DNA from: Lachnospiraceae bacterium UBA1818
Lineage (GTDB): Bacteria; Bacillota; Clostridia; Lachnospirales; Lachnospiraceae
DNA length: 64,000 bases
Reading direction: 5' to 3'
NCBI GenBank assembly: GCA_904419285.1
Contig: CAJFQZ010000006.1
Coordinates: 122,218 to 186,217, forward strand
Shown here: piece by piece, positions 41,672 through 53,750 of the stretch
How the letters are laid out: each line of letters opens with the position of its first letter
How positions within the stretch are numbered: position 1 is the first letter of the stretch
Position numbers and translations under genes: made by a program
Notes under the pieces: model-generated
Database searches by the model: none
Seen by the model: only the letters and a program-made list of their open reading frames with translations
What the model was told of the DNA's origin: nothing

Positions 41672-42130
41672 GTTCAGCAGTGTCCACACCCAGTAGAGCA
41701 GGCCCAGCGCCCAGCTTGTGACGATTCCGTACAGGATGACGGGACCGGCGATGGTGAAGATCTTGCAGCCGATGCCGAAGACCTGTCCTTCCTTTTTATA
41801 TTCAATGGCGGGCGCTGCCACGGAGTTGGCGAACCCGGTGATCGGAACGAGGGCTCCGGCGCCGCCCCATTTCGCCAGACGGGGATAGATTCCTGTTCCG
41901 GTGAGGAGTACGCTGATGAGGACCAGGAGCAGAGAGGTCCAGCTGCTGCATTCGTCGGCAGAGAGCTTCTGCATCTCACAGTAGTGATAGATCACCTGTC
42001 CGAGAAAGCAGATTGTCCCGCCAAGGAGAAATGCCTTGAGCATGTTGAGCCATACATTGTGCCGGGGCGTTTTCTTTTTTACATAGTCTTCATACTGTTT
42101 CTGTTGTTTCATGCGCTGCACTTTATCCAT
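41669..42130 (-). CDS. spoVAC: Stage V sporulation protein AC, inverted relative to its neighbours
   Basis: 153 residues, the mechanosensitive-channel subunit of the dipicolinate complex. The family signature is clear: basic start (KTPRHNVWLNMLKAFLLGGTIC), LLTGTGIYPRLAKWGGAGALVPITGFANS and GCKIFTIAGPVILYG. The start MDKVQRM follows AAAGGAGG at 8 bases; the open frame upstream is not used. In known clusters spoVAC, D and E are co-directional; here C lies on the opposite strand between spoVAB and spoVAD and so needs its own promoter. Confidence 0.93.
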   Translation of the reverse strand: MDKVQRMKQQKQYEDYVKKKTPRHNVWLNMLKAFLLGGTICFLGQVIYHYCEMQKLSADECSSWTSLLLVLISVLLTGTGIYPRLAKWGGAGALVPITGFANSVAAPAIEYKKEGQVFGIGCKIFTIAGPVILYGIVTSWALGLLYWVWTLLN

Positions 42131-42157
42131 GATGAGTGCCTCCTTTTGTTTTTGAGT

Positions 42158-42187
42158 GCGCCGGTTATCCTCCGGCGCTTCTTTTTT
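42158..42187 (+). terminator. Plus-strand terminator-like hairpin behind the spoVAC start
   Basis: GCGCCGG (42158-42164) and CCGGCGC (42172-42178) form a stem, followed by TTCTTTTTT. It would stop plus-strand transcripts that run antisense through spoVAC from the spoIIA/spoVAA side. No gene directly precedes it on that strand. Confidence 0.65.
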
Positions 42188-42586
42188 GTGATGGAGGCGG
42201 GCAAAAGTCCGGCTCCACCTAAGACTTTGACGAGGGCTGCGTGATTTTTCATCTGCGGCGGCGTGCAAATCGATGCCGCCGCTGCGCCTCATTCCTTCGG
42301 CCTGCATATGAAGAAATCATTCTGCGCGATGCTAACCAGTCATTTATTAAGTATCTGACAAACAGCTCAGATTATACTGCATTTTCCATTTTCTGCAGTT
42401 TTTGCAGGTATATTTTAGGAACAGGAGGAAGATAATAACTCTCAAAGCAGTCCTCCAGCGCGTTGGCTCCGAAATTGACTAACTGACGGAGTGGGACAAG
42501 ACGGATCCGGGGAAGGCGGGCCGGATAAATAAAATGACCGGATAAAATGGCGTGCCGGAGGATGAATCAGAAATGGAGACGGGATT
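42188..42586. other. Structured intergenic region between spoVAC and spoVAD
   Basis: Holds several stems: AAAGTC/GACTTT (42204-42228), GATTTTTCAT paired with ATGAAGAAATC (42243-42252 with 42308-42318) enclosing GCGGCGGC/GCCGCCGC (42255-42282). A minus-strand TATAAT (42371-42376) could start a leader of about 230 bases for spoVAC. The plus-strand ORF 42241-42435 looks spurious. 42440-42586 precedes spoVAD, with only a GGAG ribosome site evident. Confidence 0.45.
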
Positions 42587-43597
42587 ATGGATCAGGTAAG
42601 AGGAAGTCAGAGCATTGTGTTTTCGCAGGCTCCCTATATTATCAGCGCGGCGTCGGTGGCGGGGAGCAAGGAGGCGGAGGGTCCGCTGGCGAAGCTGTTC
42701 GATATGGTGAATCAGGACGATCTGTTCGGCGCGCAGACCTGGGAGGAAGCGGAAAGCAATATGCAGAAGGAGGCGTGTACGCTGGCACTTGGAAAGGCGC
42801 ATGTGAAAGCGGAGAAAGTGAGGTATCTGTTCGGCGGGGATCTGCTCAGGCAGGGTATCGCCACCTCCATGGGCGTGGAGGCGCTGCAGATCCCCATGTT
42901 CGGGCTGTATGGGGCATGCTCCACATCCGGCGAGGCGCTCGCGCTGGCTGCAATGAGCACAGCGGCGGGGTACGGAGAGTATATGCTTGCCGTGACGTCC
43001 AGCCACTTCGGGAGCGCGGAGAAGGAGTTCCGTTTCCCTCTGGGCTATGCCAGCCAGAGACCGCTGTCCGCCCACTGGACCGTGACCGGAAGCGGCGCCT
43101 TCCTGGTCGGGACGAGGAAGAGCCATGTGCGGATCACAGGCGTTACGGTGGGAAAGATCGTGGACTACGGACTGAAGGATTCACAGAATATGGGGGCGTG
43201 TATGGCGCCGGCAGCGATGGATACGATCGTTCAGAATCTGCATGATATGGAGCGGGAGCCGGAGGAATATGACCGGATCGTCACGGGTGATCTGGGATAT
43301 GTGGGTCAGTCGATCCTTCTGGACCTTGTGAAAGGAAAGGGATATGATATCCGGAAGCTCCATATGGACTGCGGGATGACGATCTTTGATCAGGAGACTC
43401 AGGATACCCATGCAGGAGGAAGCGGGTGCGGATGCGCGGCAGTGACGCTGGCGTCGTTTATCCTTCCGAAGATTGAGAAGGGGGAATGGAAGAGAGTGCT
43501 CTTTGTCCCCACCGGCGCGCTTATGTCCACTGTAAGCTACAATGAGGGAGCCAGTGTGCCGGGGATCGCCCACGGGATTGTGCTGGAGCACTGCTGA
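42587..43597 (+). CDS. spoVAD: Stage V sporulation protein AD
   Basis: 336-residue thiolase-fold protein that binds dipicolinic acid at the spore inner membrane. Family segments: GSQSIVFSQAPYII, YGACSTSGEALALAA, THAGGSGCGCAA and GALMSTVSYNEGASVPGIAHGI. The two Cys-containing loops sit where thiolases keep catalytic Cys, but SpoVAD is a binding protein. spoVAE follows 52 bases later. Confidence 0.95.
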   Translation: MDQVRGSQSIVFSQAPYIISAASVAGSKEAEGPLAKLFDMVNQDDLFGAQTWEEAESNMQKEACTLALGKAHVKAEKVRYLFGGDLLRQGIATSMGVEALQIPMFGLYGACSTSGEALALAAMSTAAGYGEYMLAVTSSHFGSAEKEFRFPLGYASQRPLSAHWTVTGSGAFLVGTRKSHVRITGVTVGKIVDYGLKDSQNMGACMAPAAMDTIVQNLHDMEREPEEYDRIVTGDLGYVGQSILLDLVKGKGYDIRKLHMDCGMTIFDQETQDTHAGGSGCGCAAVTLASFILPKIEKGEWKRVLFVPTGALMSTVSYNEGASVPGIAHGIVLEHC

Positions 43598-43649
43598 GAG
43601 GACGGATAAGATAGAAGGATAAGACAGGGCAGATAAGGAGGAAGAAAGT

Positions 43650-44006
43650 ATGGATTATGTGGTTTCATTTCTGATCGGAGGGCTCGTCTGCGCCGCAGTG
43701 CAGATCCTGCTGGACCGGACGAAGCTGATGCCCGGACGGGTGATGGTGCTGCTCGTGTGCACTGGCGCGGTACTGGGATTCTGCGGCCTCTATGAGCCGT
43801 TTAAGGAATTTGCAAAGTCCGGCGCCTCAGTGCCGCTGCTCGGCTTCGGGAATACGCTCTGGCAGGGGGTGAAGGACGCCGTGGATGAGAACGGGTTCAT
43901 CGGGATCTTCATGGGCGGATTCAAGGCGAGCGCGGTGGGGATCTCAGCAGCGCTGATCTTCGGGTATCTGGCGTCCTTTATCTTTGATCCGAAGATGAAA
44001 AAATAG
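43650..44006 (+). CDS. spoVAE: Stage V sporulation protein AE
   Basis: 118 residues, three to four membrane helices, family segments GLVCAAVQILLDRTKLMPGRVMV, SVPLLGFGNTL and GGFKASAVGISAALIFGYL. Component of the dipicolinate channel with SpoVAC and SpoVAD. Strong AAGGAGG ribosome site. Confidence 0.93.
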   Translation: MDYVVSFLIGGLVCAAVQILLDRTKLMPGRVMVLLVCTGAVLGFCGLYEPFKEFAKSGASVPLLGFGNTLWQGVKDAVDENGFIGIFMGGFKASAVGISAALIFGYLASFIFDPKMKK

Positions 44007-44080
44007 GGATTGTGGAGGACAGCGCTGCGAGTGCGCATGAGGGCAGAGGTTAAGTGTGCACAGTTACAACAGGCGCCGGC

Positions 44081-44136
44081 TTTACGAAGATTTAACAGAA
44101 TCGAAGATGCGGTCCTGCTTTCCCCTCTGGTATAAT
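44081..44136 (+). promoter_or_regulatory. Promoter with PhoP-box-like repeat ahead of the RpiR-type gene
   Basis: TTTACG (44081-44086) and TTAACA (44092-44097) repeat with an 11-base period, like PhoP-binding TT(A/T/C)ACA repeats. TG-G-TATAAT (-10 at 44131-44136) follows with a poor -35. The distance from repeat to -10 (50 bases) equals that ahead of pstS (49), which argues for PhoP activation. Confidence 0.6.
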
Positions 44137-44173
44137 GAGACAGAAGAAAAATCTATCAGAGAGAGGAAAGATT

Positions 44174-44188
44174 TGTAGAAAATCTACA
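44174..44188. promoter_or_regulatory. Palindromic operator 1, TGTAGAAAATCTACA
   Basis: Perfect palindrome (TGTAGA-AAA-TCTACA) in the 5' UTR, 8 bases before the start of the RpiR-type gene. The same core occurs again at its 3' end. Likely the operator of that regulator. Confidence 0.65.
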
Positions 44189-44196
44189 GGGAGATC

Positions 44197-45099
44197 ATGA
44201 AGAACGGAATCGCGAAGCAGATCATGTCAGGGTACGGAGACCTGAGAAAATCGGAGAAAAAGGCGGCGGATTATATCCTGAAAAATATGGAGCAGGCGGC
44301 GGAACTGTCCATTGACCGCCTGGCAGAAGCGGCGGGGGTGAGCAAGCCCACCGTGCTCAGGATGCTCCGCGCGTTCGGGTTTTCCGGGTATAAGGATTTT
44401 AAGTATCAGCTTGTATCTGAGCTGGCGCAGTCGGAGGCGGAACAGCAGGGTGAGGCGGAACCGATGTTCGGCTATACACTCAGGAAGCAGGATACGCTGG
44501 AAGAGATTCCTTCCTACATGACTGCCACGGCGGCGGGGATGATGGAGGAGACTTTGAAGAACTTTTCCGTCAAGACCTATCGGAAGACGGTAGAAGCCAT
44601 CAGGAAAGCGCGTCTGATCGATATCTACAGTGTGGAGAATTCAGGCGTTGCGGCGCAGGATCTGCTGGCGAAGCTTCTCTATCTCGGCCTGCCGTGCAGA
44701 TATTTCAGCGATTCTTATTATCAGAGGATCTCAGCGGGAAGCCTGACGGATGAAGATGTGGCGGTGGGTATCTCCTATTCCGGCGCGTCGAAGGATACGG
44801 TGGACGCGATGCGGACGGCGAAGCGGTCTGGTGCTGTGACGATTGTCATCACAAATTTCCGGGATTCTCCGATCTGCAGATACGCGGACATCCTGATCTG
44901 CACCAGCCAGGAGCAGTTTATTTACGGAAACGCCATCTATTCGAGGATGACGCAGCTTCTGATCGTGGACATGATCTATATGGGGATCATTGCCTCAGAT
45001 TACGAACACTATGTGGGACTTCTGGATCAGGGAGAGAAGATCGTGCGGGAGAGGGCGTACCCGTACGGAGCAGAGAAAAGGAAAAAGAAGAAACCGTAG
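44197..45099 (+). CDS. RpiR/MurR-family regulator, probably of the AEP genes
   Basis: 300 residues: N-terminal helix-turn-helix of RpiR type (about 1-80, SIDRLAEAAGVSKPTVLRMLRAFGFSGYKDFK) and a C-terminal SIS domain (about 120-280) with GISYSGASKDTVDAMRTAK. Such proteins sense phosphorylated compounds; here a phosphonate or a metabolite of it is likely by context. Placed immediately ahead of the AEP transport and breakdown genes. Same-type palindromes flank it. Confidence 0.88.
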   Translation: MKNGIAKQIMSGYGDLRKSEKKAADYILKNMEQAAELSIDRLAEAAGVSKPTVLRMLRAFGFSGYKDFKYQLVSELAQSEAEQQGEAEPMFGYTLRKQDTLEEIPSYMTATAAGMMEETLKNFSVKTYRKTVEAIRKARLIDIYSVENSGVAAQDLLAKLLYLGLPCRYFSDSYYQRISAGSLTDEDVAVGISYSGASKDTVDAMRTAKRSGAVTIVITNFRDSPICRYADILICTSQEQFIYGNAIYSRMTQLLIVDMIYMGIIASDYEHYVGLLDQGEKIVRERAYPYGAEKRKKKKP

Positions 45100-45109
45100 A
45101 TTTTCTACA
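45095..45109. promoter_or_regulatory. Palindromic operator 2, CGTAGATTTTCTACA
   Basis: Shares the 13-base core GTAGATTTTCTAC (the reverse complement of operator 1) and overlaps the regulator stop codon. It lies ahead of the terminator and promoter of the transporter operon. Confidence 0.6.
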
Positions 45110-45121
45110 ATTGAACATACG

Positions 45122-45170
45122 TTAAGCCTGTGTAAAGTTTACCATCCCTTTACACAGGCTTAATTTTTTC
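45122..45170 (+). terminator. Terminator after the RpiR-type gene
   Basis: TTAAGCCTGTGTAAA (45122-45136) and its exact complement (45149-45163) form a 15-bp stem, followed by TTTTTT. Strong intrinsic terminator. Confidence 0.92.
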
Positions 45171-45204
45171 TTGATAGAAAAGCGAAAAATATTCTGGTTA
45201 TAAT
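45171..45204 (+). promoter_or_regulatory. Possible promoter of the AEP transport operon
   Basis: TATAAT at 45199-45204. TTGATA at 45171-45176 is 22 bases away, too far for a normal -35, so the promoter is either weak or activator-dependent. The leader 45205-45324 shows no further clear signal. Confidence 0.4.
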
Positions 45205-45324
45205 CTCTCGTGCAGGCGGCCGGAGAGAGCGGAAAGCCGACGGCATCCTGCGGGACACTCTGCAGGAAATGAAACAGGCTCGAAATCGTAGAATGTTTCT
45301 GAAAAGTAAAGAGGAGTAAGTGTT

Positions 45325-46095
45325 ATGCTTGAGTTGAAAAATGTAAAGAAAAGCTATGACGGCACAGTCGTGCTGAAGAATATCAGCCTTGATATCGGGG
45401 AGGGAGAGATCGTTTCTATCTTAGGACCGTCCGGGTGCGGCAAGACGACGCTGCTGAACCTGATTCTCGGGATCGTGGACGCGGACGGCGGCAGGATCAT
45501 TTTCAATGGGGAGGACCTTACGGATGTGCCGATGGAGAAGAGAGGTTTTAACATTGTATTTCAGGACTATGCCCTGTTCCCGAACCTGAACGTATACCAG
45601 AACATTACATACGGCCTCAGAAACAGGCCGGAGATCTCTTCCAGAGAGGAAGTAGAGGAACTGATACGGCTGCTGGGGCTCGAGGAACATCTGACCAAGC
45701 GGATCGGACAGCTTTCCGGCGGACAGAAGCAGAGGGTTGCACTTGCAAGGACAATGGTGATGAAGCCGAAGATCCTTCTGCTCGACGAGCCCTTAAGCGC
45801 GCTGGACGGCGTGATCAAGGAGTCGATCAAAGACAGGATCAGGACGATCGCCAAGGAATACAATCTGACGACCATCATCGTTACCCATGATCCGGAGGAA
45901 GCGCTGACGCTTTCCGACAGAGTCATGATTATTAACGACGGAGAGATCGCGCAGTTCGGAAGACCGGAGGAGATCATCGAGAGACCGGAGAACAATTTTG
46001 TGAAGAAATTCATCCTGAACCAGCTTGAGATCAAGCGGAATAATATCTACACCCTGTTCGCAGGACAGCTGCAGGCACGGGCTCAGGTCTGCTGA
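45325..46095 (+). CDS. AEP ABC transporter, ATP-binding protein
   Basis: 256 residues, PotA/FbpC-type ATPase: Walker A GPSGCGKTT, Q loop FQDYALF, signature LSGGQKQR, Walker B LLLDEPLSALD and the H loop VTHDPEE. It lacks a long TOBE domain. It energises import of 2-aminoethylphosphonate together with the permease and binding domains just downstream (14 bases); substrate is inferred from phnW and phnX. Confidence 0.9.
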   Translation: MLELKNVKKSYDGTVVLKNISLDIGEGEIVSILGPSGCGKTTLLNLILGIVDADGGRIIFNGEDLTDVPMEKRGFNIVFQDYALFPNLNVYQNITYGLRNRPEISSREEVEELIRLLGLEEHLTKRIGQLSGGQKQRVALARTMVMKPKILLLDEPLSALDGVIKESIKDRIRTIAKEYNLTTIIVTHDPEEALTLSDRVMIINDGEIAQFGRPEEIIERPENNFVKKFILNQLEIKRNNIYTLFAGQLQARAQVC

Positions 46096-46108
46096 AGAGG
46101 AGAGTGCC

Positions 46109-48769
46109 ATGAGAAAGAACAGAGAGATTAAACTTATCTTTGTGCTGCTGGCGGTCTTTTTTGCCGGATTCCTGGCAGTGCCCATGCTCAGTGTGGTGGT
46201 GAAGTCCTTCACCGGGGACGGAAGCGGCATCTCGCTTGCTCATTATGCTGAAGTGCTCACTGGCAGAGGATTCCTGCGCGCGATGGGGAACAGCCTTCTG
46301 ATCTCCGTGTGCAGCGCGCTGATCACAACGGTGCTTGCCTTTATCCTGGCATACACGATCCACTACACGAATCTGGGAAAACGGTATAAGGGATTTATCA
46401 GCAGGGCGGCGGTCCTGCCCATGCTCCTTCCCACGATCACATATGGGTTCGCGATCATCTATTCCTTCGGAAAGCAGGGGCTTCTGACACAGCTTTTCGG
46501 CAGACAGCTTTTTAATATTTACGGATTTAACGGACTGCTGCTGGGCTATGTGGTTTATACGCTCCCCATTGCGTTTACGCTGATCAACAATGCAATGGGA
46601 TATATTGACAAGCGGTTTATGATCGTATCCAGGCTGATGGGGGATTCACCTCTGCAGACCTTCCGCATGACGATCCTGATCCCGCTGCTGGGGACACTGG
46701 CGACTTCGTTTATCCAGACCTTCTTCCTCTGCTTTACGGACTTCGGGATCCCGGCTTCTGTGGGCGGACAGTTTGAGGTTGTGGCAAGTGTCCTCTACAC
46801 AGAGATGCTGGGAAGTGTACCGAACTTCGGCAACGGCGCGGTGGTGGCTCTTGTTATGATCATCCCGTCGGTGGTGAGCATCACAGTGCTGCACATTCTG
46901 GAGAAATACAATGTGAGATATAACAGGATCTCTCCGATCGAGATCAGAAAGAGTGCGAAGAGAGACGTGGCTTTCGGGATACTGAGTGCGGTTATCCTTG
47001 TGTGCATGCTCTGCATGTTCCTTGTGATGTTTATCGTGCCCTTTATCGAAGAATGGCCCTATCGGATTAATTTTACAATGGAACATGTGCAGGCGGTATT
47101 CGGGGACAGACAGCTGTACGGTGTGTATCTTAACTCACTGATGGTGGCGGTGATCACAGCGCTGGCCGGTACGCTGATGTCCTACGGTGCGGCGCTGGTG
47201 ACGGCAAGGAGCACGGTCAGCGGGAAAGTGAAAAAAGTGATCGACAGCATCGCACTTGTGACAAACACGATCCCGGGCATGGTCATCGGTCTTTCCTACC
47301 TGTTTGTGTTCACGGGGACGCCGCTGCAGAATACTTTTCCCATCATCATCATATGCAACATCGTGCATTTCTTTTCCACGCCGTATCTGATGATGAAGAA
47401 CTCACTCTCCAAGATGAACGCATCCTGGGAGACAACGGCAATGCTCATGGGGGACAGATGGATCAAGACTATTGTCCGGGTGGTCACGCCGAACGCAGTG
47501 TCCACGCTGCTGGAGGTGTTCAGCTACTATTTTGTAAATGCAATGGTAACGGTCAGCGCGGTCATCTTTATCGCCGGTGCGCGGACCATGGTCATCACGA
47601 CCAAGATCAAGGAACTGCAGTATTTTAATGAATTTAATGAGATCTTTGTCCTGTCGCTTCTGATCTTATTCACGAATCTGATCGCCAGGGCATTGTTCCA
47701 GAAGCTCGCTGAGAGGAGCAGGAGAAAGGAGAATATAACAGATATGAAGAAAAAAGTGAGAAAAACAGGGTTCAAGAGAGCTGCAGCATTCACACTGGCA
47801 GCAGCAGTGGCAGTGACAGGCTTCGGCCTGACCGGATGCGGCGCAGGTTCTTCCGAGGATCAGGTGATCATTTATTCCAACGCCGACGAGGAAGCGATCA
47901 CGGCAATGGAGAATGCGCTGGACAAGAATGGATATGAAGGAAAGTACATGTTCCAGACATTCGGGACATCCGAGCTGGGAGGCAAACTGCTGGCAGAGGG
48001 GAAGGATATTGAAGCCGATATGGTGACAATGAGTACATTTTATTCTGAGAGTGCCCAGGAGCAGAATGAGATGTTCCAGGATCTGACATTTGATGTGGAT
48101 ACGATCGACGAGTTCCCGTCCTACTGTGCGCCGATCACTTCCCAGGAAGGAACGATCATCGTGAATACGGAGATGATGGAGGAGAATGATCTGCCGATGC
48201 CTACATCTCTGAAGGATCTGGCTGACCCGGTTTACAAAGGATTCGTCTCTGTGACGGATATCTCCGCCTCCTCCACAGCGTGGCTGCTGATCCAGGCGCT
48301 TGTGTCCGCATACGGCGAGGACGGCGCGAAGGAAGTGCTGACAGGCATCTATGAGAATGTGGGAGACCACCTGGAGGATTCCGGATCCGCTCCGCTCAAG
48401 AAAGTGCGCGCCGGCGAGGTTGCCATCGGCTTCGGACTCCGGCAGCAGGCGGTTGCGGATAAAGAAGACGGTCTTCCTATTGATTTTGTAGATCCGGAGG
48501 AGGGCAATTTCAGCCTGACAGAGTCGGTTTCCGTGGTGGATAAGGGAGACGATACGAATCCACTTGCCATGGAGATGGCGCAGTGCATCATAGAGAATGG
48601 AAGGGAAGAGCTCCAGTCCTACTACCCGAATGCGCTGTACAACGGAGAGAGCACAGACGCCGCGAATAAATCTGCCAATCCGAAGGTATTTCCGGAGAAG
48701 CTGACCGTGGATCTGCTGGAGAAGCACCAGGAGCTCTCGGAGAAGTGCAAAGAGGCAGCGGGAATGTGA
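46109..48769 (+). CDS. AEP transporter permease fused in frame to its substrate-binding lipoprotein
   Basis: 886 residues in one frame. Residues 1-545 are a double permease (PhnU2 type): two six-helix halves each with an EAA-type loop (SRLMGDSPLQTFRMTILIP and AMLMGDRWIKTIVRVVTP). Residues 546-886 are a complete binding protein with its own signal sequence (MKKKVRKTGFKRAAAFTLAA), lipobox LTGC (Cys577) and a PBP2 domain. GGAGAAAGGAG stands before the internal ATG at 47744, so the binding protein can also be started on its own. No stop codon lies between the halves. It should sit in the membrane with the binding domain outside. Confidence 0.88.
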   Translation: MRKNREIKLIFVLLAVFFAGFLAVPMLSVVVKSFTGDGSGISLAHYAEVLTGRGFLRAMGNSLLISVCSALITTVLAFILAYTIHYTNLGKRYKGFISRAAVLPMLLPTITYGFAIIYSFGKQGLLTQLFGRQLFNIYGFNGLLLGYVVYTLPIAFTLINNAMGYIDKRFMIVSRLMGDSPLQTFRMTILIPLLGTLATSFIQTFFLCFTDFGIPASVGGQFEVVASVLYTEMLGSVPNFGNGAVVALVMIIPSVVSITVLHILEKYNVRYNRISPIEIRKSAKRDVAFGILSAVILVCMLCMFLVMFIVPFIEEWPYRINFTMEHVQAVFGDRQLYGVYLNSLMVAVITALAGTLMSYGAALVTARSTVSGKVKKVIDSIALVTNTIPGMVIGLSYLFVFTGTPLQNTFPIIIICNIVHFFSTPYLMMKNSLSKMNASWETTAMLMGDRWIKTIVRVVTPNAVSTLLEVFSYYFVNAMVTVSAVIFIAGARTMVITTKIKELQYFNEFNEIFVLSLLILFTNLIARALFQKLAERSRRKENITDMKKKVRKTGFKRAAAFTLAAAVAVTGFGLTGCGAGSSEDQVIIYSNADEEAITAMENALDKNGYEGKYMFQTFGTSELGGKLLAEGKDIEADMVTMSTFYSESAQEQNEMFQDLTFDVDTIDEFPSYCAPITSQEGTIIVNTEMMEENDLPMPTSLKDLADPVYKGFVSVTDISASSTAWLLIQALVSAYGEDGAKEVLTGIYENVGDHLEDSGSAPLKKVRAGEVAIGFGLRQQAVADKEDGLPIDFVDPEEGNFSLTESVSVVDKGDDTNPLAMEMAQCIIENGREELQSYYPNALYNGESTDAANKSANPKVFPEKLTVDLLEKHQELSEKCKEAAGM

Positions 48770-48830
48770 AAAAACTGTGAAAGGGGACGTAGTCAAATTC
48801 AATTTTACTACGTCCCCAATTGAAAGAAAG
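48763..48830. repeat. 68-bp palindromic repeat, copy 1
   Basis: Matches 53683-53750 at 65 of 68 bases. The centre is an inverted repeat (GGGGACGTAGT and ACTACGTCCCC around an AT-rich loop with CAAATTCAATTTT). It starts at the stop codon of the AEP permease/binding gene and ends just before the phnW ribosome site. It looks like a REP/RAYT-type or MITE element, as no coding capacity is present. Confidence 0.85.
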
Positions 48831-48844
48831 AGAGGAATTCTACG

Positions 48845-49951
48845 ATGAAATCATACAAACTTCTTACACCGGGACCGCTCACCACAACGGACACGGTAAA
48901 ACAGCAGATGATGTTCGACCATTGCACATGGGACGATGATTACAAGCAGATCACACAGGAGATACGCAGAGGGCTGTTAAAGCTGGCCCATGTCTTTGAG
49001 AATGAGTACACGGCAGTACTCATGCAGGGCAGCGGAACGTCCGGAGTGGAGTCTGTACTTACAAGTGTCATTGGCTCCGGGGACGAGCTGCTGATCTGCG
49101 CCAACGGGGCGTACGGAGAGCGCATGGCAGACATCGCGGAGCACGCGGGGATCAAGTATCAGATCTACAAGGAGCATTACAATAAAGTGCCGAATGCGCA
49201 GAAGGTGGCGGAGCTGCTCGACGCTGACCCGGCGGTTACCCATGTCGCGATGGTGCACAGCGAGACCACATCAGGCATCCTCAACGACATTGAGGCGGTC
49301 GGAAAGGCAGTGAAGGAAAAAGGCAGAGTCTTTATCGTGGACGCCATGAGCAGTTTTGGAGGCATGGATATTCCGGTGAAGGACTGGGGCATCGACTTCA
49401 TCATCAGCAGCGCCAATAAGTGTATCCAGGGCGTGCCGGGATTCTCTTTCATCATTGCAAGAAGAGATTTGCTGGAGGCAAGCGCAGGGAAAGCAAGAAG
49501 CCTGTCACTTGATCTGTATGACCAGTGGAAGACTATGGAAGTGGATGGTAAATGGCGGTTTACCTCGCCGACTCACGCAGTTCTTGCATTTGCACAGGCA
49601 ATGAAAGAGCTGGAGGAAGAGGGCGGCATTGAGGCGAGAAACAGACGCTACACAGAGAATAATCAGCTGCTGATCAGGAGAATGTCGGAAATGGGATTCC
49701 GGACGTATATCGATGACACACATCAGAGTCCGTTTATAACAACATTCTTCTACCCGGAGAACTGCTCCTTCACATTTTCCCGGATGTATGATTATATCAA
49801 AGAGAGAGGATATGCGATCTACCCTGGGAAGCTGACCGAGGCTGATACATTCCGCATCGGAAATATCGGAGAAATCTATCCGGAGGATATCGAGAAGGTG
49901 TGCGCGATCATAAAAGAATTTCTGGAGGAATACAACCATGAAGAAAATTAA
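48845..49951 (+). CDS. phnW: 2-aminoethylphosphonate-pyruvate transaminase
   Basis: 368-residue class V PLP aminotransferase that turns AEP plus pyruvate into phosphonoacetaldehyde plus alanine. PLP lysine is Lys192 in SSANKCIQGVPG; start LLTPGPLTTTDTVK and QGSGTSGVESVL are family features. It overlaps phnX by 14 bases. Confidence 0.96.
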   Translation: MKSYKLLTPGPLTTTDTVKQQMMFDHCTWDDDYKQITQEIRRGLLKLAHVFENEYTAVLMQGSGTSGVESVLTSVIGSGDELLICANGAYGERMADIAEHAGIKYQIYKEHYNKVPNAQKVAELLDADPAVTHVAMVHSETTSGILNDIEAVGKAVKEKGRVFIVDAMSSFGGMDIPVKDWGIDFIISSANKCIQGVPGFSFIIARRDLLEASAGKARSLSLDLYDQWKTMEVDGKWRFTSPTHAVLAFAQAMKELEEEGGIEARNRRYTENNQLLIRRMSEMGFRTYIDDTHQSPFITTFFYPENCSFTFSRMYDYIKERGYAIYPGKLTEADTFRIGNIGEIYPEDIEKVCAIIKEFLEEYNHEEN

Positions 49952-50711
49952 GGCAGTGATCTTTGACTGGGCGGGGACGACAGTAGACTTCGGATGTATG
50001 GCGCCGGTCCAGGCATTTGTGGAGGTCTTTAAGCAGTACGGCATCGAACCGACGATGGAAGAGGTGCGCGGACCCATGGGCATGCTCAAGATCGATCACA
50101 TCCGTACTATGCTGCGGATGGACCGGATTCGGACATGCTGGGTGCAGAAATATGGAAAGGAGCCCGGTGAGGAAGAGGCACAGGCACTCTATCAGGTCTT
50201 CGAGGAGAAGCTTCTGAGCATCCTTCATCTCTATGCCGATCCGAAGCCGGGCGTGGTGGAGACGGTGAACCGTCTGAGAAGAAATGGGTTCAGGATCGGC
50301 TCCACGACGGGATACACGGACAAGATGATGGAGATCGTCGTCCCAGCGGCAAAGGAGAAGGGATATGAGCCGGATGTGTGGTTCAGCCCGGATTCCACAG
50401 GACAGAAGGGACGCCCGTACCCGTATATGATTTTCCGCAATATGGAGGCGCTGGAGATCAAGAAGGTGCGCCGCGTGCTGAAAGTGGGGGATACAGTGTC
50501 TGACATCAAGGAAGGCAGGAATGCCGGCGCCTGGTCCGCGGGAATCGTGGTAGGAAGCTCCGAGATGGGACTGAGCCTTTCCGAGTACGAAGCGCTTGAA
50601 CAGGATGAAAAAGAACGCTTCTGCAGGATCACGGCTGACAGATTTTTAGAAGCAGGCGCCGATAAGGTGTTCTATACTATGGAAGATCTCGGGGAATTCC
50701 TTCTCGGATAA
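49938..50711 (+). CDS. phnX: Phosphonoacetaldehyde hydrolase
   Basis: 257-residue HAD-family enzyme that cleaves the C-P bond of phosphonoacetaldehyde into acetaldehyde and phosphate through a Schiff base. Nucleophile Asp10 in FDWAGTT, Schiff-base Lys51 in GMLKIDHI, and GDTVSDIKEG as the metal motif. With phnW it gives AEP use as a phosphate source. Confidence 0.96.
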   Translation: MKKIKAVIFDWAGTTVDFGCMAPVQAFVEVFKQYGIEPTMEEVRGPMGMLKIDHIRTMLRMDRIRTCWVQKYGKEPGEEEAQALYQVFEEKLLSILHLYADPKPGVVETVNRLRRNGFRIGSTTGYTDKMMEIVVPAAKEKGYEPDVWFSPDSTGQKGRPYPYMIFRNMEALEIKKVRRVLKVGDTVSDIKEGRNAGAWSAGIVVGSSEMGLSLSEYEALEQDEKERFCRITADRFLEAGADKVFYTMEDLGEFLLG

Positions 50712-50752
50712 GAAAAGCATCGTTTAATTTAGATGAAAATATCTGGAAAAAG

Positions 50753-50795
50753 AGAGCTCTATTTTGTGCAAAACAGCGTAAAATAGGGCTTTTTC
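50753..50795 (+). terminator. Terminator after phnX
   Basis: AGCTCTATTTT (50755-50765) pairs with AAAATAGGGCT (50780-50790), with one G-U pair, followed by TTTT. It separates the phn and pst units. Confidence 0.85.
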
Positions 50796-50799
50796 GGAC

Positions 50800-50854
50800 T
50801 TTACACAGATTTAACATTCTGCTGATTTTACATTTAACATTGCCCCTATATGAT
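50800..50854 (+). promoter_or_regulatory. Pho-box promoter of pstS
   Basis: TTTACA (50800-50805) and TTAACA (50811-50816) with an 11-base period, then TTTACA (50827-50832) and TTAACA (50834-50839); TATGAT (50849-50854) is a candidate -10. Several TT(A/T/C)ACA repeats upstream of pst match PhoP-type control. Confidence 0.75.
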
Positions 50855-50912
50855 GAATACCGTGGTCAAAAACAACACACAATAATCGAAATGAAAAAGG
50901 AGATTATCGAAA

Positions 50913-51815
50913 ATGAAAATGAAAAAGTTTATCGCAGTATTATCTATCGCAAGTATGATGGCAGTTGCGGCAGTTGGATGCGGAAGCAGCAACAGCGACA
51001 ACGCAGGCTCTGATAATGGCTCTGATACAGCATCAGGCTGGGACGCAGCAAGCGCGATCACAGTTGTATCCCGTGAGGAAGGTTCAGGAACAAGAGGAGC
51101 TTTCACAGAGCTGTTCGGCGTAGTCGATGAAGACGATAACGATATGACAACAATGGATGCTCAGGTTACGAACAACACATCCGTTATGATGACAACTGTA
51201 TCAGAGAACGAGTATGCGATCGGATACATATCTCTCGGATCTCTTGATGAGTCTCTTGTGAAGGCTGTAAAGATCGACGGAGCAGATGCTACAGCAGAGA
51301 ATATCGAGAACGGATCCTACAAAGTATCCAGACCGTTCAATGTGGCGGTGAAGAAAGATCTTGACAACGCTGTCGCAACGGATTTCATGAGCTTTATCAT
51401 GAGCACAGAGGGACAGGAAGTGGTTTCAGAAGAAGGATACATCCCGGTATCTGACGTACAGGCTTACGCAGGAAGTGCACCGTCAGGAAGCTGCGTGGTA
51501 GGTGGATCTTCTTCTGTATCTCCGCTGATGGAGAAACTGATCGAGGCTTACAAAGCAGTAAACCCGAACGCATCTATTGAGCTTCAGACATCTGATTCTA
51601 CAACAGGTATGACATCCGCCATCGAGGGAAGCTATGACATCGGTATGGCATCCAGAGAGCTGAAGGATGAGGAAGCGGCAGAGCTTAACGGAACAGTGAT
51701 CGCTACAGACGGTATCGCTGTTATCGTAAACCAGGAGAACCCGACAGATGATCTGTCAGTAGATCAGGTAAAATCCATCTACATGGGCGATGTTACAACA
51801 TGGGATGCGATCTGA
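50913..51815 (+). CDS. pstS: Phosphate-binding lipoprotein PstS, circularly permuted
   Basis: 300 residues with a lipoprotein signal (lipobox AAVGC, Cys23) and a Ser/Asn/Asp linker. The domain order is unusual: residues about 43-180 match the second half of PstS (VVSREEGSGTRGAF, YAIGYISLGSL, SYKVSRPF, GYIPV), while residues about 193-300 match the first half (GGSSSVSPLMEKL, YDIGMASRELKDEEA, DGIAVIVN, VKSIYMGDVTTWDAI). All parts needed for a phosphate site are there in swapped order. Captures phosphate for PstCAB at the outer membrane face. Confidence 0.93.
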   Translation: MKMKKFIAVLSIASMMAVAAVGCGSSNSDNAGSDNGSDTASGWDAASAITVVSREEGSGTRGAFTELFGVVDEDDNDMTTMDAQVTNNTSVMMTTVSENEYAIGYISLGSLDESLVKAVKIDGADATAENIENGSYKVSRPFNVAVKKDLDNAVATDFMSFIMSTEGQEVVSEEGYIPVSDVQAYAGSAPSGSCVVGGSSSVSPLMEKLIEAYKAVNPNASIELQTSDSTTGMTSAIEGSYDIGMASRELKDEEAAELNGTVIATDGIAVIVNQENPTDDLSVDQVKSIYMGDVTTWDAI

Positions 51816-51885
51816 TCAGATCCTTGAGGACTGAAGATACGACACAGAAAAAATTGTAAAGTGAGAGACTTTCCGCTTTGAATGT

Positions 51886-51924
51886 ATGAGCCGGGCAGAT
51901 ATGAGATATGTCTTCCCGGCTCAT
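51886..51924 (+). other. Hairpin between pstS and pstC
   Basis: ATGAGCCGGG (51886-51895) and CCCGGCTCAT (51915-51924) form a perfect 10-bp stem right before the pstC ribosome site, without a U run. It may protect the pstS message or hold pstC expression down, giving more binding protein than permease. Confidence 0.6.
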
Positions 51925-51936
51925 TAGGAGGAAAAA

Positions 51937-52830
51937 ATGAAATCAAAAGCATGGACTGAGAAATTCATGCAGGGAGTATTTTTCGTTGCCGCGTGTGCAT
52001 CCGTGCTGGCGGTAGCCCTCATCTGCATCTTCTTGTTTGCAAATGGTATCCCTGCAATGAAGGAAATTGGATTTATAAAATTTTTGACAGGGGAAATCTG
52101 GAGACCGGGCAGTGATCAGTTCGGCATCCTGCCGATGATCGTCGGAAGCCTTTATGTGACTGCTGGAGCGATCATCTTCGGAGTACCGATCGGGATCCTG
52201 ACTTCTGTATTCATGGCAATGTACTGTCCGAAACAGATCTACAAGCCGCTGAAGGCAGCGACAGAGCTTCTTGCCGGAATCCCTTCGGTTATCTACGGTT
52301 TCTTCGGTCTGGTGGTCGTTGTGCCGCTGATCCGCAATCTGGGAACAGCGCTGTATAAGGCAAACATTGTGGATAATCCGGGAAACGGAAACAGTATCCT
52401 GACCGCATCCCTGATCCTTGGAATGATGATCCTGCCTACGATCATCGGGACAACAGAGAGTGCGATGCGGGCGGTTCCTTCTCATTATTATGAAGGATCT
52501 CTTGCGCTGGGTGCGACGAAAGAGAGAAGTATCTTCCGTGTCATCATTCCGGCTGCAAAGTCCGGTGTGATCACAGGAATCGTGCTGGGAATCGGACGCG
52601 CAATCGGCGAGACGATGGCAGTTATCATGATCGTCGGAAACCAGGCACGTCTCACAAACAGTATCCTTCAGGGAATCCGTACCCTGACCGGTAATATCGT
52701 TATCGAGATGGGGTATGCGACAGGCCTGCACCGTGAGGCGCTGATCGCAACAGGAGTTGTTCTCTTTGTGTTTATCCTGATCATCAACTTATGTGTAGCA
52801 ATGTTAAAGAGGGGGACGGATCATGAGTAA
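51937..52830 (+). CDS. pstC: Phosphate ABC transporter permease PstC
   Basis: 297 residues, six membrane helices, with the typical ELLAGIPSVIYGFFGLVVVVP and EAA loop LGATKERSIFRVIIPAAKSGVI. Forms the phosphate channel with PstA, whose gene it overlaps by 8 bases. Confidence 0.95.
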   Translation: MKSKAWTEKFMQGVFFVAACASVLAVALICIFLFANGIPAMKEIGFIKFLTGEIWRPGSDQFGILPMIVGSLYVTAGAIIFGVPIGILTSVFMAMYCPKQIYKPLKAATELLAGIPSVIYGFFGLVVVVPLIRNLGTALYKANIVDNPGNGNSILTASLILGMMILPTIIGTTESAMRAVPSHYYEGSLALGATKERSIFRVIIPAAKSGVITGIVLGIGRAIGETMAVIMIVGNQARLTNSILQGIRTLTGNIVIEMGYATGLHREALIATGVVLFVFILIINLCVAMLKRGTDHE

Positions 52831-53683: not shown

Positions 53684-53750
53684 ATGTGAAAAAACTGTGA
53701 AAGGGGACGTAGTCAAATTCAATTTCACTACGTCCCAAATTGAAGGAAAG
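53683..53750. repeat. 68-bp palindromic repeat, copy 2
   Basis: Differs from copy 1 at three positions (T/C, C/A, A/G). Sits between pstA and pstB inside one operon, directly after the pstA stop. The two copies are direct repeats 4920 bases apart, which puts phnW, phnX, pstS, pstC and pstA between them. The hairpin could modulate the pstB level. Confidence 0.85.

What the first reader, a model, noticed from the sequence alone, without database searches (positions are those of the whole stretch)
46109..48769. ABC permease and its binding lipoprotein in one reading frame
Seen: no stop codon between a two-module permease (545 codons) and a full binding protein that keeps its own signal sequence, lipobox and a strong internal ribosome site (GGAGAAAGGAG before the ATG at 47744). 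The cell could make both a tethered 886-residue protein and free lipoprotein from one gene, which would give a self-contained importer with extra free receptor. In the usual AEP systems these are separate genes. A membrane-embedded internal lipobox at Cys577 also raises the question of whether signal peptidase II cuts the fusion.
Basis: partly seen in the sequence, partly recalled or inferred. Interest (0 to 1): 0.75.

Follow-up and report, generated by a model that had tools for sequence, protein, structure and literature searches.

The report
Transporter fused to its own receptor
In some gut bacteria one gene encodes both the membrane channel and the outside receptor of a nutrient importer, and in this genome the gene also keeps a second start signal from which the receptor alone could be made; related species appear to show intermediate and final stages of receptors becoming permanently attached to their transporters.

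Summary
Observation confirmed: 46109-48769 is one uninterrupted 886-codon frame joining a 12-helix ABC permease (PhnU2-like) to a complete binding protein (PhnS2-like) that keeps its own Shine-Dalgarno, ATG (47744), signal peptide and lipobox (Cys577), in an operon with ATPase, phnW and phnX. An assembly error is very unlikely: of 104 distinct assessable junctions in related loci 42 are open in frame, a complete chromosome included; in a first set of 89 loci the permease-SBP junction was open in 30, ATPase-permease in 1 of 84, SBP-PhnW in 0 of 83. Open junctions are of two kinds: 26 (this window included) keep an SD-backed ATG and lipobox; 15 have neither, and a more hydrophobic, probably permanent 13th helix; one is discordant. 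In the second kind the tethered receptor seems to be the only close one. Best reading: one gene, two outputs, a permease-receptor chain plus free lipoprotein from the internal start; whether signal peptidase II cuts the chain is open. Receptor-permease fusions are known (OpuA, OpuF, EgtU); the kept internal start, the single-chain permease and the series of states make this a new variant. Substrate (2-AEP) is inferred from neighbours. No protein data.

The parts
46109..48769 (+). single open reading frame, 886 codons + TGA: permease-receptor fusion (calculated 97.4 kDa)
46109..47743 (+). permease part, 545 codons, two modules, 12 predicted membrane helices, PhnU2-like (TIGR03262, 354 bits, below its curated cut-off of 593)
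   Evidence: PF00528 with two stretches
47721..47731 (+). internal Shine-Dalgarno GGAGAAAGGAG, 12 bases before the ATG; duplex energy -12.7 kcal/mol with the 16S tail (tail sequence recalled)
   Evidence: same SD core and distance are the only SD-backed start of the separate receptor gene in L004
47744..48769 (+). receptor with its own ATG: 341 codons, PhnS2/AfuA/FbpA-like solute-binding protein (calculated 36.8 kDa as precursor)
   Evidence: structure model of the mature part pLDDT 95.7, best PDB matches VcA0625, AfuA, P5PA
47783..47839 (+). signal-peptide core that is also the 13th membrane helix in the fusion (residues 559-577), ending in the lipobox LTGC with Cys577
   Evidence: helix 552-576 in the low-confidence fusion model
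45325..46095 (+). ABC ATPase gene of the same importer (PhnT2-like, 302 bits, below cut-off 458)
48845..49951 (+). phnW, 2-aminoethylphosphonate--pyruvate transaminase (over the curated cut-off)
49938..50711 (+). phnX, phosphonoacetaldehyde hydrolase (over the curated cut-off)
44197..45099 (+). RpiR/MurR-type regulator (HTH_6 + SIS), possible regulator of the operon (inference from position)

Best explanation
One gene with two translation starts encodes the membrane half and the receptor of a phosphonate (probably 2-aminoethylphosphonate) importer. Ribosomes that start at 46109 read through into the receptor and make a single chain: 12 permease helices, a positively charged cytoplasmic loop, then the receptor's former signal peptide as a 13th helix that places the receptor outside, 8 residues from the membrane. 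Because both permease modules are on one chain, each transporter would carry one tethered receptor. Ribosomes that start at the internal SD/ATG (47744) make a free receptor, exported and lipid-anchored at its lipobox. SHOWN by sequence: the open frame, both start signals, lipobox, charge pattern, recurrence in relatives, and relatives that lack the SD-backed start and lipobox and have a more hydrophobic helix. INFERRED: that both products are made here, that at least part of the chain stays uncut, and the substrate.
For: Open frame and exact internal signals. Of 42 open junctions, 26 have an ATG with SD energy of -9.1 kcal/mol or stronger 24-45 codons before the receptor's first conserved motif, and a lipobox; 15 have neither; 1 is discordant (L106: a C-box before the hydrophobic core, ATG without SD). 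In the 15 the best 19-residue hydropathy (2.14-2.59) does not overlap that of the 26 (1.58-2.07; Mann-Whitney U = 0, p 1.4e-7, not kinship-corrected): it looks like a cleavable signal turned into a lasting anchor. Of six genomes with a start-less junction that were searched (L106 counted), four hold no other receptor of this family at E 1e-5 and two hold only 27-30% relatives, so there the tethered form is the only close receptor. SD is stronger in the 26 than in the 62 separate-gene loci (median -10.45 vs -9.4, p 0.0008). The same SD core and distance start the separate receptor in L004. OpuA has the same layout: anchoring helix plus an 11-residue linker (PMC11065425, passages).
Against: No protein or ribosome data. 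The lipobox is intact and the helix less hydrophobic here (1.66) than in the start-less group, so signal peptidase II may cut the chain. L040, one of the 15, has a GTG with a strong SD (-9.7) 47 codons upstream, just outside the rule, and no lipobox. The state flips often (13 changes, 96 rows). The coupling of start loss and hydropathy gives only 3 phylogenetically independent pairs (median p 0.25). Synonymous-codon control of the internal SD is weak: 4 of 23 loci with p < 0.05, the window's own p 0.39. The full-length model is of low confidence (pLDDT 67.6; 541-583 under 50).
Confidence: 0.5

Rival explanations
1. Polyprotein: the full chain is made but Lgt lipidates Cys577 and signal peptidase II cuts it, giving separate permease (with a helical tail) and lipoprotein in 1:1 ratio, while the internal start tops up the receptor. 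The fusion is then a way to couple expression, not a tether.
For: Intact LTGC lipobox and signal-peptide-like core in the window, and a lipobox in each of the 26 loci of its kind (this is part of how the kind is defined); 12 K/R in the loop before the helix give the signal-peptide orientation.
Against: If cutting of the chain were what the lipobox is for, it should persist when the internal start is lost; it is absent in 15 of the 16 open junctions without an SD-backed ATG. I know of no case in which a lipoprotein signal behind a 12-helix protein is processed (recalled; not searched for by itself).
Confidence: 0.3
2. Near-neutral read-through: the permease stop was lost by chance, the receptor is made almost wholly from its own strong start, and the fused chain is a minor or degraded by-product.
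For: Frequent switching between states (13 changes on 96 rows); apparent reversal inside the genus by an inserted 3' tail with a stop; SD and lipobox kept in the window.
Against: No stop codon lies between 46109 and 48767 in this frame, so a ribosome that completes the permease goes on into the receptor: permease without receptor should not be made. In-frame fusion is concentrated at this junction (30 of 89, against 1 of 84 and 0 of 83 at the neighbouring junctions). Several lineages have only the fused form.
Confidence: 0.17
3. Sequencing or assembly error removed a stop or shifted the frame.
For: Many congeners do have a stop at the junction.
Against: Separate assemblies share the open frame at 87-92% identity (L002, L003, L056), as do a complete genome (L038) and named-strain genomes (L039, L053).
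Confidence: 0.02

Closest known systems
OpuA of Lactococcus lactis (OpuABC) and OpuF of Bacillus
   Same: Receptor in one chain with the permease; in OpuA held by an anchoring helix and an 11-residue linker (PMC11065425 passages); 8 residues here. OpuF known to me only from its title in a reference list.
   Different: OpuA uses two OpuABC chains, so two receptors per transporter; here both modules are on one chain, so one. Internal SD, start and lipobox kept here; in the passages seen nothing of that kind is said of OpuA or OpuF. Other receptor family.
EgtU (ergothioneine importer, Streptococcus pneumoniae)
   Same: Receptor domain (residues 232-503) in the same chain as the membrane domain; the paper states that Gram-positive receptors are either lipid-anchored or fused (PMC9732360 passages).
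   Different: Other family; here both modes would come from one gene.
PhnS2-PhnT2-PhnU2 / PhnSTUV / AepXVW 2-AEP importers
   Same: PhnS2, PhnT2 and PhnU2 are the best-scoring 2-AEP models for the three parts; phnW and phnX next door.
   Different: Scores are below the curated cut-offs; the receptor is described as a separate protein in PhnCDE, PhnSTUV and AepXVW (PMC8316502 passages).
Bacterial genes with internal in-frame starts giving a shorter second product (CheA, IF2, ClpB; recalled)
   Same: Two products from one frame by a second SD and ATG.
   Different: There both products stay in one compartment (recalled); here they would differ in membrane attachment.

Membership tests
Receptor-permease chimeric ABC importer (OpuA kind) | Receptor and membrane domain in one reading frame | tested here: met
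Receptor-permease chimeric ABC importer (OpuA kind) | Receptor C-terminal behind an anchoring helix and short linker | tested here: inconclusive
   Hydropathy and charge agree, but the helix also carries a lipobox and the model is weak there
Receptor-permease chimeric ABC importer (OpuA kind) | No separate start or lipid anchor for the receptor | tested here: not met
   SD, ATG and lipobox present in the window; SD-backed ATG and lipobox both absent in 15 of 42 open junctions of relatives
Receptor-permease chimeric ABC importer (OpuA kind) | Fused protein present and active | not testable with these tools
   needs protein data
PhnS2T2U2 2-AEP importer (TIGR03261/03265/03262) | Scores over the curated cut-offs | tested here: not met
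   100 < 393, 302 < 458, 354 < 593 bits
PhnS2T2U2 2-AEP importer (TIGR03261/03265/03262) | Operon with 2-AEP degradation genes | tested here: met
   phnW and phnX over cut-off; PhnW found next to the receptor in 83 of 89 loci, not seen in the held DNA of 6
PhnS2T2U2 2-AEP importer (TIGR03261/03265/03262) | Transports 2-AEP | not testable with these tools
   receptor fold nearest to VcA0625, AfuA and P5PA, which bind phosphate esters, compatible only
Lipoprotein solute-binding protein | Signal peptide with lipobox behind a start codon with SD | tested here: met
Lipoprotein solute-binding protein | Lipidated and cut at the cysteine | not testable with these tools
   needs protein data

The most novel reading that the evidence does not exclude
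A lipoprotein signal peptide here does double duty: start region and cleavable signal for the free receptor, and 13th transmembrane helix of a single-chain importer, so that lipidation and cutting at Cys577 would set the ratio of tethered to free receptor. Gut Lachnospiraceae and their relatives would hold the whole path from separate genes, through dual-output genes, to obligate fusions, taken several times independently and sometimes reversed.
Probability: 0.35. Interest if true: 0.68.

Novelty: new variant of a known kind. Interest (0 to 1): 0.52.

Why it matters
How a freely exchanging receptor becomes a permanent part of its transporter, and what a cell gains, is an old question for ABC importers. 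This family offers natural before, between and after states at about 50-90% identity, some in named, cultured strains, so the effect of tethering (local concentration, stoichiometry, need for free receptor) can be tested with closely related parts. It also warns annotators: one gene call can hide a second probable product, and a split gene call can hide a fusion.

Tried and rejected
Assembly error: rejected. Chance open frame: rejected with the neighbouring junctions as control. Synonymous-codon control for selection on the internal SD: weak; reported as such. Phylogenetically independent pairs for start loss against hydropathy: only 3, no significance possible. Full-length structure model: too weak to judge docking of the receptor; the receptor alone is good. 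Rfam: nothing at gathering scores in 42000-52000. Consensus promoters and terminators in 44000-51000: 6 and 6 found, 5.9 and 4.9 in shuffles. A second receptor gene of this family in the window's genome: none at E 1e-5. Script slips: two loci (L038, L067) were mis-anchored and called start-less, corrected; searches counted one locus twice (L145 and L152), so their 105 junctions and 63 separate ones are 104 and 62, and the 96-row tree holds that one duplicate. Rows left out: 36 of 184 loci not assessable at the junction (many are only distant permeases; L092, start-less, and L012, with a shortened permease and shifted frame, are among them) and 44 repeats; 9 of 105 rows too short for the second tree, 13 of 89 for the first. 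Print search: nine searches of the open library (some lists were cut, e.g. 15 of 131 and 25 of 109); I saw listings, and passages of five papers. No listing described a receptor-permease fusion in a 2-AEP or FbpB-like importer, or one with a retained internal start. Subscription papers are mostly not held; [quoted passage not shown]

Full report
What is there. The frame 46109-48769 translates to 886 residues with one stop at its end. Residues 11-541 match the 2-AEP permease model TIGR03262 and residues 572-842 the receptor model TIGR03261, both clearly but below the curated cut-offs (354 of 593 and 100 of 393 bits). Pfam finds two stretches of the permease domain in the first part and solute-binding domains in the second. 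Hydropathy gives 13 helices: 12 in the permease and one at 559-577, which is the receptor's signal-peptide core; 12 Lys/Arg lie in the loop before it, as expected for a cytoplasmic loop. The internal GGAGAAAGGAG lies at 47721-47731, 12 bases before ATG 47744, and Cys577 ends the lipobox LTGC. The operon reads ATPase (45325), fusion, phnW (48845), phnX (49938); the last two pass their curated cut-offs. A 2-AEP importer is therefore the natural inference, not a tested fact.

The receptor. Its mature part, modelled with an alignment of 65 rows, reaches pLDDT 95.7; the best solved relatives by fold and by sequence are glucose-6-phosphate binding VcA0625, sugar-phosphate binding AfuA and the pyridoxal-phosphate binding protein P5PA, which fits a phosphonate ligand. 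The full-length model has pLDDT 67.6 and is under 50 at 541-583, so it does not tell how the receptor sits on the permease.

Relatives. Searches of genome collections and places taken by coordinates gave 184 loci. In a first pass 89 distinct permease-receptor loci were assessable, 30 of them scored open in one frame (later showed that L078 and L123, scored separate there because the permease is interrupted elsewhere, are open at the junction too). In the same loci the ATPase-permease junction is fused in 1 of 84 (L055, where deletions seem to have occurred) and receptor-PhnW in 0 of 83. In the full set 104 distinct junctions were assessable; 62 have a stop or a frame break, 42 are open (recount). 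The open state occurs in a complete chromosome (Claveliimonas bilis, L038) and in named strains (L039, L053).

Two kinds of open junction. The rule: an ATG with SD energy of -8 kcal/mol or stronger, 24-45 codons before the receptor's first conserved motif, and a lipobox. Kind one, 26 loci with this window: ATG 34 to 40 codons before the motif (32 in L078), SD energies from -15.2 to -9.1, lipobox. Kind two, 15 loci (Blautia hansenii, B. caecimuris, Candidatus Mediterraneibacter excrementigallinarum and others): no such ATG, no lipobox; within the rule's distance the SD energies before any ATG, GTG or TTG reach only -6.8. One of the 15, L040, has a GTG with an SD of -9.7 at 47 codons, outside the rule; it has no lipobox. 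One locus, L106, is discordant: it has a C-box, but before the hydrophobic core, and an ATG without SD. The hydrophobic stretch of kind two (2.14-2.59) is more hydrophobic than that of kind one (1.58-2.07; window 1.66) with no overlap. Three Blautia-type loci look like steps of decay: an ATG without SD in L135, GTG in L059, neither in L050. Of six genomes with start-less junctions that were searched (those of L040, L049, L050, L059, L106, L111) four have no other receptor of the family at E 1e-5 and two have one further relative each, at 27-30% identity. There the tethered receptor probably does the work, if the importer works at all.

History. On a tree of 96 rows (one locus twice) the open/closed state changes 13 times; well-supported branches force at least 8 changes for the separate state and at least 4 for kind two (quick search, some long branches, so approximate). 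Within the window's genus the fused members share their linker (RKENxxxM) with fused outgroups (Claveliimonas, Merdimonas), while separate-gene members in the alignment carry an extra 3' tail; L004 keeps the old SD and distance behind that tail. So fusion is probably ancestral there and was split again in some species. This is an inference from one alignment and a partly resolved tree.

How it most likely works. A ribosome that finishes the permease runs into the receptor, so permease without receptor should not be made; the internal start can add free receptor. The OpuA literature gives the physical frame: an anchoring helix and 11-residue linker hold the receptor at an apparent concentration of about 4 mM (PMC11065425, passages). 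Here 8 residues lie between Cys577 and the first strand. A tethered receptor at such concentration would mostly outcompete a free one, so either free receptor is abundant, or it captures substrate for hand-over, or the chain is cut at Cys577 (inference). That lipobox and SD-backed start are absent together argues that the lipobox serves the free product rather than cutting of the chain. I put 0.5 on two outputs with a chain at least partly uncut, 0.3 on a cut polyprotein, 0.17 on a near-neutral by-product.

Compared with what is known. Receptor-permease fusion as such is known (OpuA, OpuF, EgtU). Not found in nine searches of an open-access library (listings, some cut; passages of five papers) are the fusion in this importer class, a single-chain permease with one tethered receptor, the retained internal start and lipobox, and the graded series. 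Hence a new variant of a known kind. The curated 2-AEP transporter models are not passed, so I do not file it as a proven PhnS2T2U2 member.

Noticed in passing
window 48783-48817 and 53703-53737: A 35-bp interspersed palindrome GGGGACGTAGT...ACTACGTCCCC; 23 places in the genome within 3 mismatches, 0 in the reversed-pattern control. The genome has one Y1 transposase match (PF01797, C40:1824-2153), and two copies flank it (C40:1643-1677 and 2606-2640): looks like a REP/RAYT pair. The first window copy lies between the receptor and phnW; the inner pattern occurs in 9 of 184 fetched loci, repeats counted.
   Followed up: partly
window 50913-51815: PstS-like phosphate-binding protein is circularly permuted: its first half matches the C-terminal half of an ordinary PstS and its second half the N-terminal half (4q8r), while it is collinear with PstS2 4h1x, which has the same order.
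   Followed up: partly
L055 4236-7917 (Sellimonas caecigallum): ATPase, permease, receptor and a C-terminal part that resembles PhnW in one 1227-codon frame, apparently through two in-frame deletions, in a contig of 129 kb. Real decay or assembly collapse not settled.
   Followed up: partly
window 45124-45204: Terminator-like hairpin (AAGCCTGTGTAAAG...CTTTACACAGGCTT, then a T-run, read) after the RpiR-type regulator gene, directly followed by a 10-of-12 promoter-like site at 45175-45204: possible start of the importer operon.
   Followed up: no
L135, L059, L050 junctions: Apparent stepwise decay of the internal start in Blautia-type loci: ATG without SD, then GTG, then neither.
   Followed up: partly
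L004 and other separate-gene congeners, 3' end of the permease: Separate permeases of the window's genus share an extra tail of the form TAKxYxF..KKAA before the stop, absent from the fused congeners and the two fused outgroups aligned: looks like a fission by insertion.
   Followed up: partly
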